DNA of 34,745 nt, taken from NCBI GenBank assembly GCA_016209965.1, contig JACQVE010000256.1, positions 1 through 34,745 on the forward strand, in the 5' to 3' direction. Both the position numbers and the translations under genes were made by a program. Position 1 is the stretch's first letter. Each line of letters opens with the position of its first letter. The DNA is from Gemmatimonadota bacterium (lineage in GTDB: Bacteria > Gemmatimonadota > Gemmatimonadetes > Longimicrobiales > RSA9). The notes under the pieces are model-generated. The model worked only from the letters and a program-made list of their open reading frames with translations, made no database searches and was not told the origin of the DNA. Shown here piece after piece: positions 30,395 through 34,378 of the stretch.

Positions 30395-30715
30395 TCACCC
30401 CGAGCCTTGCCCTTCCGCCAGTTGCCTCAGTCGCCCGGCCAGCGCCGCATCCGTTACGCCCAGCGCGCTCAGCGGCCCGCGGCCCACGGCCCACCCCAGC
30501 TCCGAGCGGCTGAAGCCGACCAGGTGCTGGACCCGCCGCTGCTCCAGCAGCGGCAGTAGCTTGGCCCGACTGTTCGGCGAAGCGTCGGCAGCTACGATCA
30601 CCAAACGGAGTGCGCCCCCGCGCACCGCCTCGCGCACGCGCTGCGTGCCCGGAAGCACCGCCCCCGCCCGCGCCGCCAGTCCGAGCAGGCGCAGCACCGC
30701 CTCAGACTTCGCCAT
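30395..30715 (-). CDS. L7Ae/L30e-family RNA-binding protein (YlxQ-like)
   Basis: 106 aa. The N-terminal ~90 residues fit the L7Ae/L30e/S12e fold: LLGLAARAGAVLPGTQRVREAV followed by a LVIVAADASPNSRAKL strand-helix. In this position (nusA to infB) such proteins are called YlxQ and are thought to bind structured RNA; the exact target is unknown. The start overlaps the nusA end by 14 nt. The small ylxR gene that often lies between nusA and ylxQ is absent. Confidence 0.85.
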   Translation of the reverse strand: MAKSEAVLRLLGLAARAGAVLPGTQRVREAVRGGALRLVIVAADASPNSRAKLLPLLEQRRVQHLVGFSRSELGWAVGRGPLSALGVTDAALAGRLRQLAEGQGSG

Positions 30716-32144
30716 CCTCGAGCGGCTCGGCCGGCGACTTCTCGAGCGGCTCGGCCGGCGGCTCCTCGAGCGACACGCCCAGCATCTCCGCGCCTTCCCG
30801 CGCCTCCGCCAGCTCCTGCGCCGAGGGACCGGCCGCCGCGGCCTCGTCCGCCGCAGGCTCTTCTTCCGTCAACTCGTCGATCACGCGCACGACCGCATCC
30901 ACCTCCCCGGCTCCCAGGCCAGGCACGCGGAGCAAGTCCTCGCGTTCCAGATCAATGATATCGAAAAATGTAGTATACCCCGCCCCTTCTAGTGCCGCCA
31001 GGGTCGCGGGCGGCAGATCCAGCTCGCGCAGCGGGAAGTCCGCCACCTCGTATTCCTGCTCACCGCCGCCGAAGAGCGCCGCTTCCGCGCCGCGCTCGAG
31101 CCACTCGCGGCTGCCGTACAGGTCGATCTGCCAGCCAATCAGTTGACTGGCCAGCCGCACGTTCTGCCCGTTGCGCCCGATCGCCAGCGAAAGCTGGTCC
31201 TCGTCTACGATGGCCGTGATCACGCGCCGCGACGAATCGCTGATGACCTTGGCCACCTTGGCCGGCGCCAGCGAGCGCCGCGCGTAGATCTCCGGATCCG
31301 GGTGCCAGGGCACGATGTCAATGCGCTCGCCGCCCAGCTCGCTCACCACGGCCTGCACGCGCGAGCCCTTGAGCCCTACGCACGCGCCCACTGGATCGAT
31401 GGACTCGTCCCGCGACGAGACCGCCACCTTCGTGCGGCCGCCGACCTCGCGGGCGATCCCCTTGATGTCTACAATGCCTTGATAGATCTCGGGCACCTCG
31501 AGCTTGAACAGCGCCGCTACGAACAGCGGATCCGCCCGCGACAGAATGAGCCGCGGACCCTTGGGCGTCTCCTCCACTTTCTTCAGCACTGCCCGGATCG
31601 GCTCGCCCTGACGGAACCGCTCGCGCGGGTTCTGCTCCTTCCAGGGAATGATCGCGTCCGCCTCCCGCGTCTTGTTCAGCATGACCACTATCTTGCCCCG
31701 CTCGACCTGCTGCACCTCGCCGCTCAGCAGATCGCCCACCTTGTTCGCGTACTCCTCACGGATCCGGTTCCGCTCCCCCTCCCGTACCCGCTGGATGATC
31801 CGCTGCTTCGCCGCCATCACCGCGTTGCGGCCAAACTCCGCAAAATCCACCGGGATCTCGAGAACGTCGCCAACCTCGAACTCCGGGTCGTCCCAGCGCG
31901 CCTCGTCCAGCGAGATCTCCCGCGACGAGTCCTGCACTTCAGCCACCACTTCCTTCAGGACCGTGATCTGAATGTCACCGCCATCCTCATCGATGGCGAT
32001 CTCGGCTTCGACGGCCGGACCGTAGCGCTTCTGCAGCGCGGCCATGATCCCGTCCTGGATCAGATCATGGAGGTCGGCCTGGGACAGACTCTTGTTCTGC
32101 GTCATGTCCCGGAACGCCGCCAGCACCTGCGTCGCGTTGGTCAT
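30702..32144 (-). CDS. nusA: Transcription termination/antitermination factor NusA
   Basis: 480 aa. It binds RNA polymerase and nascent RNA, and stimulates pausing and intrinsic termination. It has the N-terminal polymerase-binding domain (1-130), an S1 domain (about 135-200), KH1 (about 250-280, CVGLKGSRVQAV) and KH2 (about 318-345, AIGRNGQNVRLAS), then one helix-hairpin-helix repeat (about 378-422) and an acidic tail with the repeat PAEPLE. GGGAG lies 6 nt before the ATG. Its operon leader contains an intrinsic terminator, so NusA could act on its own expression (inference). Confidence 0.97.
   Translation of the reverse strand: MTNATQVLAAFRDMTQNKSLSQADLHDLIQDGIMAALQKRYGPAVEAEIAIDEDGGDIQITVLKEVVAEVQDSSREISLDEARWDDPEFEVGDVLEIPVDFAEFGRNAVMAAKQRIIQRVREGERNRIREEYANKVGDLLSGEVQQVERGKIVVMLNKTREADAIIPWKEQNPRERFRQGEPIRAVLKKVEETPKGPRLILSRADPLFVAALFKLEVPEIYQGIVDIKGIAREVGGRTKVAVSSRDESIDPVGACVGLKGSRVQAVVSELGGERIDIVPWHPDPEIYARRSLAPAKVAKVISDSSRRVITAIVDEDQLSLAIGRNGQNVRLASQLIGWQIDLYGSREWLERGAEAALFGGGEQEYEVADFPLRELDLPPATLAALEGAGYTTFFDIIDLEREDLLRVPGLGAGEVDAVVRVIDELTEEEPAADEAAAAGPSAQELAEAREGAEMLGVSLEEPPAEPLEKSPAEPLEDGEV
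30717..30760. repeat. 24-bp direct repeat at the 3' end of nusA
   Basis: The 20-mer CTCGAGCGGCTCGGCCGGCG occurs at 30717-30736 and again at 30741-30760. It encodes the repeated PAEPLE in the acidic NusA tail. Confidence 0.85.
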
Positions 32145-32185
32145 TAGCTCTCCCGCTCACTCCTTTGGCGCGGCGGGCCCCCGCC

Positions 32186-32674
32186 TCAGCGGGCATGGCC
32201 CCACCGGAAAATCAAATGGGCGCGCGCGATCTCGCCCCGCGCAAGTTCCACCACCTCACCGTCCGCGAGCTGCAGCCGCACCCACATCCCACCATCGCTC
32301 AAGCCGAGCAGCGTTCCCTCCAGCCGCCGGCCGCGCCCCGCCAGCGGAGCGACGCCTTTGATGGCGACTTCCCGGCCCGCGAAGCGCTCGAAGTCCCGCG
32401 GCCGAACCAGCGGCCGCTCGATGCCGGGGGATGAAACCTCCAGTACGTAGCGTGCCCCCAGCTCCGCCATCTGGTCCAGCAGCGACTCGAGCTCACGGCT
32501 CACGCGGGCGCAATCGTCCAGCGTCACGCCCCGCCCGCGCTCCGAGTCCGGCCGGTCAATCCGCAGCCGCAGGATCGGCCGGCTCCGCGAACCGGTGCGC
32601 TCGAGCTCGACGAGTTCGTAGCCCAGCGCCTCGACGCGCGCCTCCAGCAACCGCTCGAGCGGATCGTCGGCCAT
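32186..32674 (-). CDS. rimP: Ribosome maturation factor RimP
   Basis: 162 aa from ATG 32674 (MADDPLERLLEARVEALGYELVELE), the normal start and length; the frame is open further upstream, but that would run through the promoter and terminator. It assists 30S assembly. DDCARVSRELESLLD and YVLEVSSPGIERPLVRPRDFERF are the family signature, and the C-terminal SH3-like domain follows. The start has no strong Shine-Dalgarno sequence and lies 14 nt downstream of a terminator, so expression is probably limited (inference). It is first gene of rimP-nusA-infB and 41 nt upstream of nusA. Confidence 0.94.
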   Translation of the reverse strand: MADDPLERLLEARVEALGYELVELERTGSRSRPILRLRIDRPDSERGRGVTLDDCARVSRELESLLDQMAELGARYVLEVSSPGIERPLVRPRDFERFAGREVAIKGVAPLAGRGRRLEGTLLGLSDGGMWVRLQLADGEVVELARGEIARAHLIFRWGHAR

Positions 32675-32688
32675 GGGTGCACCCGAAT

Positions 32689-32715
32689 AAAAAAGTGGGG
32701 GCTCGTCCCCCACTT
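32689..32715 (-). terminator. Intrinsic terminator (attenuator-like) in the rimP leader
   Basis: On the minus strand a perfect 9-bp stem (AAGTGGGGG with CCCCCACTT) and a 5-nt loop ACGAG are followed by T6-A-TT. It lies downstream of the promoter at 32783-32755 and ends 14 nt before the rimP start. A leader CTCGT at 32739-32735 is complementary both to ACGAG at 32720-32716 and to the terminator loop ACGAG, which allows alternative pairings. Confidence 0.85.
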
Positions 32716-32754
32716 CTCGTACCGGGCCCGCAGCACGAGCCCGGATGCAATGGC

Positions 32755-32783
32755 AATATAATGGCGGCGGCGAGGAAAGACAA
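32755..32783 (-). promoter_or_regulatory. Promoter for the rimP-nusA-infB operon
   Basis: On the minus strand, TTGTCT (32783-32778), a 17-nt spacer and TATATT (32760-32755), a 5/6 match to the -10 consensus. Transcription would start near 32748, giving a leader of about 74 nt that contains the terminator. A perfect TTGACA at 32794-32789 lies just upstream but has no -10 box at 17 nt. Confidence 0.55.
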
Positions 32784-32801
32784 CCCCTTGTCAACGCTAG
32801 C

Positions 32802-32825
32802 GCTAGGGCAAGGGCCAGCCCTAGC
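32802..32825 (-). repeat. GC-rich inverted repeat over the OsmC stop codon
   Basis: GCTAGGGC (32802-32809) and GCCCTAGC (32818-32825) form a perfect 8-bp inverted repeat with an 8-nt loop, spanning the TAG stop. No T-run follows on the minus strand, so it is a weak terminator candidate or an RNA-stabilising 3' hairpin. Confidence 0.6.
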
Positions 32826-33285
32826 CCTCCTCGGCGATTTCCGCCTGCCAGCCGACCTCCACAGCCCCGCGCAGGCTCTGCGCCGTCGGGCACTTCTCCT
32901 GGTGCCGCGCCAACGCCCGCTCCACCACCTCCCGGCTCCCGGCCGGAACGCGCAGCACGTACTTCAGGTGGATGCGCGTCAGCACGGGCATGCTCTCGCG
33001 CAGCTCGTTCACGCCCTCGGCCTCCGCCCGAATCGCCTCGGCTGGCAGCTTGATCCCGCGCACCTCCAGTGCGCCGTTCAGGGTGCCCAGCATTCAGGCG
33101 CCGGTGGCGGCGACCACGTAGTCCACGGGGAGCGGCAGGTCCGGCTCGCCCCCCAGCTTGTAGTGCAGCTTGATGGGGCCGTGTACGCCAAACTCGACCG
33201 TGGCGCCCGACTCCAGGGTGGCGCGGCGGTGCACGCCCCGGACTTTCTCGATCCGCACCCGCGCGCGGTAGAACGGCTCGCTCAT
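32821..33285 (-). CDS. OsmC-family peroxidase-like selenoprotein (in-frame TGA read as selenocysteine)
   Basis: 154 aa if the TGA at 33096-33094 is read as selenocysteine (Sec64). The start ATG 33285 has GGAG 7 nt upstream. Both halves are in one frame, and together they make one OsmC/Ohr-type protein: LHYKLGGEPDLPLPVDYVV before the TGA, and LGTLNGALEVRGI after it. The family's reactive cysteine follows a (L/T)G(A/G) turn at exactly this codon (AATGA-U-MLGTL). The second family cysteine is present, Cys132 in HQEKCPTAQSL. OsmC-type proteins reduce organic hydroperoxides; OsmC-like selenoproteins have been described, to my recollection. A SECIS-like hairpin follows the TGA. The alternative is two split ORFs or a Cys-to-stop change. 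The start overlaps the upstream gene as ATGA. Selenocysteine genes (selA, selB, selC, selD) are not in this window. Confidence 0.75.
33058..33074 (-). promoter_or_regulatory. SECIS-like hairpin downstream of the OsmC TGA
   Basis: On the minus strand GCGCAC (33074-33069), loop TGGAG (33068-33064) and GTGCGC (33063-33058) form a perfect 6-bp stem. The loop begins 25 nt after the TGA, inside the 16-37 nt window of bacterial SECIS models. The second loop base is G, as those models require. A CCC/GGG lower pairing is possible with an asymmetric bulge. Confidence 0.65.
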
Positions 33286-33521
33286 TTCTGCTCTCCGTTT
33301 TGACTGGCCGGATCGACCGGCGTGTCGGCTCGGCTCGCCGTCGACGCTTCGTACCCGCGGCAGCGCAGCACGGGCAGCCTCGGGTAACGGGGGAAGGCCG
33401 GGTCGAAACGCGAGCGCTCGCACAGGAAGAAGTGCGAACCGCGCCGGTTCCGGATCACGCGGCCGTGCCGGCACATCGCGCACAGACCGGGCGCCTCCGC
33501 TTTCACTGGAAAATCGTTCAT
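33282..33521 (-). CDS. Small four-cysteine protein of unknown function
   Basis: 79 aa from ATG 33521 (MNDFPVKAEAP). Cysteines lie in CAMCRHG, LCERS and LRCRGYE, a C-x2-C...C...C arrangement that suggests a zinc or metal site. The FDPAFPRYPRLPVL segment is rich in proline and aromatic residues. I recall similar uncharacterised small proteins but no named function. Its TGA overlaps the OsmC start (ATGA), so it is translationally coupled to the selenoprotein candidate. The 5' end of the gene is part of a 37-nt duplication shared with the end of pgeF. Confidence 0.7.
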   Translation of the reverse strand: MNDFPVKAEAPGLCAMCRHGRVIRNRRGSHFFLCERSRFDPAFPRYPRLPVLRCRGYEASTASRADTPVDPASQNGEQK

Positions 33522-33581
33522 CGCAGGTGAAATGATCCTGCCTGGCACACCGCGCACAGACCGGGGCGCCTCCGCTTTCAC
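33470..33581. repeat. Pair of 37/38-nt direct repeats, 74 nt apart
   Basis: Copy 1 is 33470-33506 and copy 2 is 33544-33581, differing by one substitution (T/C) and one extra G. Copy 1 encodes the KAEAPGLCAMC part of the small Cys protein. Copy 2, shifted by the indel, covers the last codons and stop of pgeF and the spacer after it. This looks like a local tandem duplication. Confidence 0.85.
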
Positions 33582-34378
33582 ACCCCCTGCGCCCCCGTGG
33601 GGCGCAGCCCCAGCACACCCAGTTGTCGGCCGGGCGAGCCCGCGCGGTGAGAGAAGAAGGGCGAGTTCCCGCAGCGCGTGCAGAGGCTCGAGCTCGTCAC
33701 CTGTGCTCCGGGTATGCCCAGTGCCGCCGCCCGCCCGGCGAGCAGCGCCCGCAGGTCCACGGGCCCGGGCGCGGGCCGCCGCTCGAGCCCCAGCGCCGCG
33801 TGCACTTCCGCTCCCACCTCGTAGCAGGCACCGCAGATCGCCGGCCCCAGGTGCAGGTGCAGGTCAGCCCGGCGGGAGCCCGCGGCACCGGCAAGCCGCG
33901 CTACACCGGCCTCGAGTACCCCAGCAGCAATGCCGCGCCAGCCGCCGTGCAGCAGCGCCACGGCACGCTGCTCCGCGTCAACCAGAGAGATGGGGACGCA
34001 GTCCGCCACAGACACGGTGAGCAGCACTCCCGCATCCCGGGTCACATGCCCATCGGCCCCCTCGGCCAGGAAAACGCCGGGCGGCCCCGCGCCATGCACC
34101 AGCACCTCCGCACCGTGCACCTGCAGCGCATGCACGGCGCGCGGGCACCCCGTCGCCTGGCGCAGCCGCGTCCACCGCGCCCAAACCGTCGCGGCCGGCA
34201 CTTCACCGAACCAGCGCAGGTCGAACGGCTCCTGCTCCGCTCCCCGCGCCGTCGTGCCCTGCACCAGCCAGGGAAAGCGGCGCGCCCACTCCGCGTGAAG
34301 GAACAGAGGAAGCGGCGCCGCGGCCCGCTCTTCCCGGACCGGCCGCGCCCGCAGCGCCGGGGCTACCGCTCCCCTCAC
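33578..34378 (-). CDS. pgeF: Purine nucleoside phosphorylase / polyphenol oxidase family (PgeF, YfiH/YlmD)
   Basis: 266 aa from a GTG that overlaps the preceding stop (GTGA). It belongs to the Cu-oxidase_4/laccase-domain family, now known as purine nucleoside phosphorylases with a zinc site. Motifs: LQVHGA (His88), VADCVPI (Cys127), HGGWRGI (His144), GPAICGACYEVG and LCTRC...FFSHRA. The C-terminus (GVLGLRPTG) is short, and the stop lies inside the duplicated 37-nt repeat. A murein-synthesis linked (YfiH) role is also proposed for this family. Confidence 0.9.
   Translation of the reverse strand: MRGAVAPALRARPVREERAAAPLPLFLHAEWARRFPWLVQGTTARGAEQEPFDLRWFGEVPAATVWARWTRLRQATGCPRAVHALQVHGAEVLVHGAGPPGVFLAEGADGHVTRDAGVLLTVSVADCVPISLVDAEQRAVALLHGGWRGIAAGVLEAGVARLAGAAGSRRADLHLHLGPAICGACYEVGAEVHAALGLERRPAPGPVDLRALLAGRAAALGIPGAQVTSSSLCTRCGNSPFFSHRAGSPGRQLGVLGLRPTGAQGV

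What the first reader, a model, noticed from the sequence alone, without database searches (positions are those of the whole stretch)
32821..33285. OsmC-family gene with TGA at the catalytic cysteine: candidate selenoprotein
One uninterrupted frame from 33285 to 32821 carries a single internal TGA (33096-33094). The residues on both sides belong to the same OsmC-type domain, and the TGA falls at the usual reactive-cysteine position, with the partner cysteine (Cys132, HQEKCP) intact. Without recoding, the gene would be called as two hypothetical pieces with no ribosome binding site before the second. The known rule in selenoproteins is that TGA replaces the catalytic cysteine, and that is what is seen here. 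I infer selenocysteine insertion.
Basis: partly seen in the sequence, partly recalled or inferred. Interest (0 to 1): 0.92.

Follow-up and report, generated by a model that had tools for sequence, protein, structure and literature searches.

The report
Selenocysteine OsmC-type peroxidase gene
This bacterial gene reads one stop codon (TGA) as the rare amino acid selenocysteine at the reactive site of an OsmC-type, probably peroxide-reducing protein; the same site is kept as TGA in over a hundred related genomes, and standard gene finding would break the gene in two.

Summary
The finding holds. The frame 33285..32821 (-) has one in-frame TGA (33096-33094) in the middle of one OsmC domain (PF02566, 5.5e-14). 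The TGA aligns with the reactive Cys of solved OsmC/Ohr proteins, and Cys132 with the second Cys. All 111 distinct relatives I read, across the phylum (probably Gemmatimonadota), have exactly one TGA, at this site. Only remote classical OsmC proteins (about 25-35% identity) have Cys there. A hairpin 22 nt after the UGA meets the published bacterial SECIS rules; it forms in 65/65 closer relatives, against a mean of 4 after synonymous codon reshuffling, with compensatory changes at two pairs. The genome has tRNA-Sec (anticodon TCA), SelB, a SelD that itself carries an in-frame TGA, and part of SelA at a contig edge. TGA is also the window's commonest stop, so this is local recoding. OsmC-like selenoproteins have been known since 2005, so the kind is not new; but NCBI's curated model for them scores this protein at 30 bits against a cut-off of 95. 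It belongs to an apparently undescribed, Sec-only subfamily with two paralogous branches. Sec insertion is inferred, not shown at protein level; the peroxidase role is inferred from homology.

The parts
32821..33285 (-). Sec-containing OsmC-family gene (154 aa with Sec64), ATG 33285 to TAG 32821
   Evidence: PF02566 5.5e-14 across the TGA; 111 relatives with the same single TGA; model pLDDT 87.4 with OsmC fold
33094..33096 (-). In-frame TGA, codon 64, read as selenocysteine at the reactive (peroxidatic) Cys position
   Evidence: Aligns to the first Cys of 1ukk and 1n2f and to Cys in 16/16 Cys-type OsmC proteins; TGA in 111/111 close relatives
33058..33074 (-). SECIS hairpin: GCGCAC-UGGAG-GUGCGC; apical loop 33068-33064 begins 25 nt after the UGA
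   Evidence: 6 bp formed in 65/65 (group 1) and 29/34 (group 2) relatives against means of 4.1 and 1.8 after synonymous reshuffling; compensatory changes at 27-35 and 26-36; meets the bSECIS rules quoted in PMC13188914
32890..32892 (-). Cys132 codon (HQEKCP), predicted resolving cysteine
   Evidence: Invariant in 111/111 Sec forms and 16/16 Cys forms
33293..33296 (-). Shine-Dalgarno-like GGAG, 7 nt before the start codon
   Evidence: sequence
33282..33521 (-). Small four-cysteine protein upstream; its stop overlaps the OsmC start by 4 nt (ATGA)
   Evidence: Homologue upstream on the same strand in 26 of 77 group-1 loci; no Pfam family

Best explanation
The gene encodes an OsmC-family thiol/selenol peroxidase-like protein whose reactive cysteine is selenocysteine. 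The UGA at codon 64 is decoded by tRNA-Sec brought by SelB, which recognises a hairpin 22 nt downstream inside the coding sequence. The selenolate at the middle of the central helix most likely attacks a (probably organic) hydroperoxide and is then resolved by Cys132; a thiol reductant completes the cycle. Shown here: the frame, the domain, conservation of the TGA, selection on the RNA hairpin, and presence of the Sec machinery genes. Inferred: that Sec is actually inserted, and the peroxidase chemistry, substrate and reductant. The confidence given is for a selenoprotein of the OsmC family; for the peroxidase role it is about 0.7.
For: One OsmC domain across the TGA. TGA in 111/111 distinct relatives at the same site, in two paralogous branches that form one clade apart from Cys OsmC proteins (support 99/94). 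Cys at that column in 16/16 Cys-type OsmC proteins and in solved structures. SECIS hairpin: 65/65 against a mean of 4.1 (maximum 12 in 200 trials) with codons reshuffled; mean folding energy -12.6 against -7.6 (sd 0.3) kcal/mol; the signal is confined to the window starting 5 codons after the UGA (mean z -2.5, elsewhere between -0.5 and +1); Ala codon GCA, 7% elsewhere in these genes, is used in 53 sequences exactly where it must pair with GUG, and GCG in the 12 where the partner is GCG. tRNA-Sec 71.5 bits, anticodon TCA; SelB 366.6 bits; SelD 390 bits with its own in-frame TGA at GAG-U-ACK; SelA N-terminal 174 residues at a contig end, complete in five relatives. The model places residue 64 inside helix 54-75 and Cys132 just after helix 118-131; the best fold matches are OsmC/Ohr.
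Against: No protein-level evidence. SelA in this genome is cut by a contig end. Folding this one hairpin sequence alone is not remarkable (z -0.69 for 42 nt); the case for the hairpin is comparative. Seven of 114 genomes with a strong Sec-OsmC match lack a strong tRNA-Sec match (my count); at least some are incomplete drafts. Sequence similarity to characterised OsmC/Ohr enzymes is low (about 20%), so the reaction is not certain.
Confidence: 0.96

Rival explanations
1. Two separate genes, the second restarting at the ATG that follows the TGA directly (TGAATG), giving two half-domain proteins.
For: TGAATG is present in this window, and the mechanical ORF list gives a 90-aa ORF starting at that ATG.
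Against: ATG follows the TGA in only 33 of 111 relatives, CTN in the other 78. The break falls inside the central helix of one domain. The hairpin downstream is selected at RNA level.
Confidence: 0.01
2. Sequencing or assembly error, or a recent nonsense mutation (pseudogene).
For: The genome is a draft of 354 contigs; raw reads were not available.
Against: The same TGA in 111 distinct proteins from independently assembled genomes, with the frame open on both sides and Cys132 invariant.
Confidence: 0.005
3. Genome-wide reassignment of TGA to an amino acid, or unspecific read-through.
For: None found.
Against: TGA ends 16 of 25 main genes of the window and 57 of 111 of these very genes. A dedicated tRNA-Sec and SelB are present.
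Confidence: 0.005
4. A selenoprotein of the OsmC fold, but not a peroxidase: for example a selenol-dependent reductase, or a binder of small electrophiles or metals.
For: OsmC-fold proteins are diverse; similarity to characterised Ohr/OsmC enzymes is low. The upstream partner is a small four-Cys protein of unknown role.
Against: Both redox positions of OsmC peroxidases are invariant.
Confidence: 0.25

Closest known systems
OsmC-like selenoprotein (Sargasso Sea and GOS metagenomes, PMC1088965 and PMC2398784; NCBIfam NF041052 OsmC_like_Se)
   Same: OsmC domain, Sec in place of Cys, bacterial SECIS
   Different: Reported motif is UxxT; here UxxGT. This protein scores 30 bits against a cut-off of 95 on NF041052, and no match in 298 genomes of the phylum passes the cut-off.
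OsmC / Ohr peroxidases (PF02566; PDB 1ukk, 1nye, 1n2f, 6ebg)
   Same: Fold; positions of the two redox residues
   Different: Cys replaced by Sec; about 17-22% identity in structural alignment
Bacterial SECIS element (bSECIS consensus, PMC13188914)
   Same: 6-bp upper stem, 5-nt loop UGGAG fitting N1-GG-N-N2, spacing 25 nt (allowed 16-37), hairpin energy about -12.7 kcal/mol (allowed -7.5 or lower)
   Different: No difference found; a short, very GC-rich version

Membership tests
Bacterial selenoprotein | In-frame UGA aligned with Cys in homologues | tested here: met
Bacterial selenoprotein | UGA conserved in several distinct relatives | tested here: met
   111/111 distinct proteins
Bacterial selenoprotein | bSECIS hairpin downstream of the UGA (loop 3-9 nt, stem 4-16 bp, G in the first two loop positions, spacing 16-37 nt, energy at or below -7.5) | tested here: met
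Bacterial selenoprotein | tRNA-Sec, SelB, SelD, SelA in the genome | tested here: met
   SelA only as a piece at a contig end, complete in relatives
Bacterial selenoprotein | Selenium in the protein product | not testable with these tools
   needs mass spectrometry or 75Se labelling
OsmC/Ohr superfamily (PF02566) | Domain score over the curated cut-off | tested here: met
   52.8 bits against 27.5
OsmC/Ohr superfamily (PF02566) | Two redox residues at the helix sites | tested here: met
   Sec64 and Cys132, invariant
OsmC/Ohr superfamily (PF02566) | Hydroperoxide reductase activity | not testable with these tools
   needs an enzyme assay
NCBIfam NF041052 OsmC_like_Se | Score over the curated cut-off of 95 bits | tested here: not met
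   30.3 bits; relatives of both branches 21-33 bits or no match
Sargasso Sea OsmC-like selenoprotein | UxxT motif | tested here: not met
   UxxGT in all 111

The most novel reading that the evidence does not exclude
A phylum-wide, Sec-only OsmC subfamily with two old paralogous branches, in which Sec has not been swapped for Cys in any genome sampled, suggesting the protein depends on selenium for its function rather than using Sec as an optional upgrade.
Probability: 0.6. Interest if true: 0.55.

Novelty: new member of a known kind. Interest (0 to 1): 0.45.

Why it matters
Standard annotation cuts this gene, and its relatives in more than a hundred genomes, into fragments. The subfamily shows that selenocysteine is a stable feature of these OsmC proteins across a phylum. 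It gives a test case for why some enzymes do not revert from Sec to Cys, and a GC-rich SECIS with clear covariation that can improve selenoprotein finders.

Tried and rejected
Rejected: restart at TGAATG, error or pseudogene, reassigned code. Rfam scan of the window found nothing, which is uninformative for bSECIS. Viral contigs held no relative. The genome-contig scan returned only one close relative (L002) and one Cys protein (L003); its peptide patterns are narrow, so it says little about spread outside the phylum. A single-sequence fold of the hairpin region was inconclusive. Two papers by Haft and colleagues on new selenoprotein families are not held, so prior notice of this subfamily cannot be fully excluded; the 2026 review lists only one OsmC selenoprotein, with motif UxxT.

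Full report
Observation. The minus-strand frame 33285-32821 encodes 154 residues with one in-frame TGA at codon 64 (33096-33094) and ends in TAG. A GGAG lies 7 nt before the ATG. Read through, the protein matches PF02566 OsmC at 5.5e-14 over residues 47-145, across the TGA; the N-terminal 63 residues alone match nothing and the C-terminal part alone matches at 3.4e-8. In alignments with solved proteins, codon 64 sits on the reactive Cys (1ukk AAHAGCFSMAL; 1n2f YSACFIGAM) and Cys132 on the second Cys.

Conservation. A search of 395 genomes of the same phylum (the named relative L002 is a Gemmatimonadetes MAG, so the phylum is very probably Gemmatimonadota) found matches in 155; by my count 114 genomes have a strong match (E 1e-16 or better), and every strong match listed carries the TGA. 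I read 111 distinct proteins: each has exactly one in-frame TGA, at the same site, within a motif U-x-x-G-T. They form two branches: one including the window protein (76 rows, about 50-70% identity to it) and one more distant (35 rows, about 33-47%), together one clade (99/94) apart from Cys-type OsmC proteins (one row, L058, was first labelled with the wrong branch by best match). All 16 Cys-type OsmC proteins examined, mostly from the same phylum and including the second OsmC of this genome (G000:C41), have Cys in the TGA column and a second Cys in the Cys132 column. These are only remotely similar (about 25-35%), so no close Cys orthologue was found.

Machinery. The same genome holds a tRNA-Sec (71.5 bits, gathering score 47; ARAGORN: tRNA-SeC, anticodon TCA), SelB (366.6 bits, over its cut-off), and SelD (390 bits), which itself has a TGA at the HGAG-U-ACK site. 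It also holds the first 174 residues of SelA at a contig end; SelA is complete in five relatives checked. Of the 114 genomes with a strong Sec-OsmC match, 107 have a tRNA-Sec match at E 1e-9 or better (hand count). tRNA-Sec passes the cut-off in 314 of 395 genomes, so the whole phylum is largely Sec-decoding and the co-occurrence is consistent rather than sharp.

SECIS. Counting the U of UGA as 1, positions 23-28 pair with 34-39 around the loop UGGAG (29-33); in the window this is 33074-33058. All six pairs form in 65 of 65 distinct group-1 sequences and 29 of 34 group-2 sequences; reshuffling synonymous codons with the genes' own usage gives means of 4.1 (maximum 12) and 1.8 (maximum 7). Position 27, a silent third base of Ala, is A in the 53 group-1 sequences where position 35 is U, and G in the 12 where it is C. 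Position 36, also silent, changes from G to A in all seven sequences (one in group 1, six in group 2) where position 26 changes from C to U. GCA is only 7% of Ala codons elsewhere in these genes. A scan along the gene shows the folding signal only in the window starting five codons after the UGA (mean z -2.5). These tests do not correct for relatedness, but the use of rare silent bases exactly where pairing needs them, in both branches, is hard to explain otherwise. Five group-2 sequences (L051, L052, L054-L056) have lost this stem and appear to fold a shifted one instead. The hairpin meets all four rules of the published bSECIS model: loop 3-9 nt, stem 4-16 bp, G within the first two loop positions, spacing 16-37 nt, energy at or below -7.5 (PMC13188914; here 5 nt, 6 bp, G at the second loop position, 25 nt, about -12.7). 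Folded alone, the window sequence is unremarkable (z -0.69).

Alternatives. TGA ends 16 of the 25 main genes of the window, so the code is not reassigned. ATG follows the TGA in only 33 of 111 relatives, so restart is not the conserved feature. Error or decay is excluded by conservation.

Function. AlphaFold2 (pLDDT 87.4, two-sequence alignment) puts residue 64 inside the long central helix 54-75 and Cys132 at the end of helix 118-131; the best structural matches are OsmC and Ohr (Foldseek probability 1.00, though TM-scores are only 0.5-0.6 for this monomer model). From established knowledge of OsmC/Ohr enzymes I infer a peroxidase cycle: selenolate attack on a hydroperoxide, selenenyl-sulfide with Cys132, then reduction by a dithiol. 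Substrate and reductant are not known.

Known kinds. OsmC-like selenoproteins were reported from the Sargasso Sea in 2005 (3 sequences, motif UxxT; PMC1088965) and again in GOS (PMC2398784), and NCBIfam has a model, NF041052. The window protein scores 30 bits against that model's cut-off of 95, relatives of both branches 21-33 bits or no match, and no match in 298 genomes of the phylum passes it. So this is an OsmC selenoprotein, but not a member of that model's family as curated. I found no paper describing Sec-OsmC in this phylum, but two relevant papers were not available.

Noticed in passing
L164-L171 (for example L165, L168): A third, separate OsmC selenoprotein type in another family of the phylum (f4): motif GAU-TSMTIALYARR, with its own hairpin (CGCGC-UGUAU-GCGCG) after the UGA. 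It scores about 50 bits on NF041052, still below its cut-off.
   Followed up: partly
window 33282-33521 (-): Small protein with four cysteines (CAMC ... LCE ... RCRG), no Pfam family, overlapping the OsmC start by 4 nt; a homologue sits upstream of the Sec-OsmC gene on the same strand in 26 of 77 group-1 loci. Possible functional partner, for example a redox or zinc-binding protein.
   Followed up: partly
L045 1531-1533 (G000:C99): The SelD of this genome is itself a selenoprotein: in-frame TGA at the catalytic site (LSHGAG-U-ACKL).
   Followed up: partly
L051, L052, L054, L055, L056: Five group-2 relatives lack the common SECIS stem and show a shifted hairpin (CC-CUGG-AAG-CCAG-A-GG): possibly a SECIS that has moved within a conserved coding stretch.
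   Followed up: no
L133 (end) and L153 (start): In genome G110 the group-2 gene is cut by two contig ends right at the UGA (one contig ends ...VAAAAG, the other begins G-UGA-LTGTF).
   Followed up: no
window 30702-34378 (-): Gene order laccase-like (PF02578), four-Cys protein, Sec-OsmC, rimP, nusA; the link of Sec-OsmC to rimP-nusA is seen in 7 of the group-1 loci read, all from the window's own taxonomic family.
   Followed up: partly
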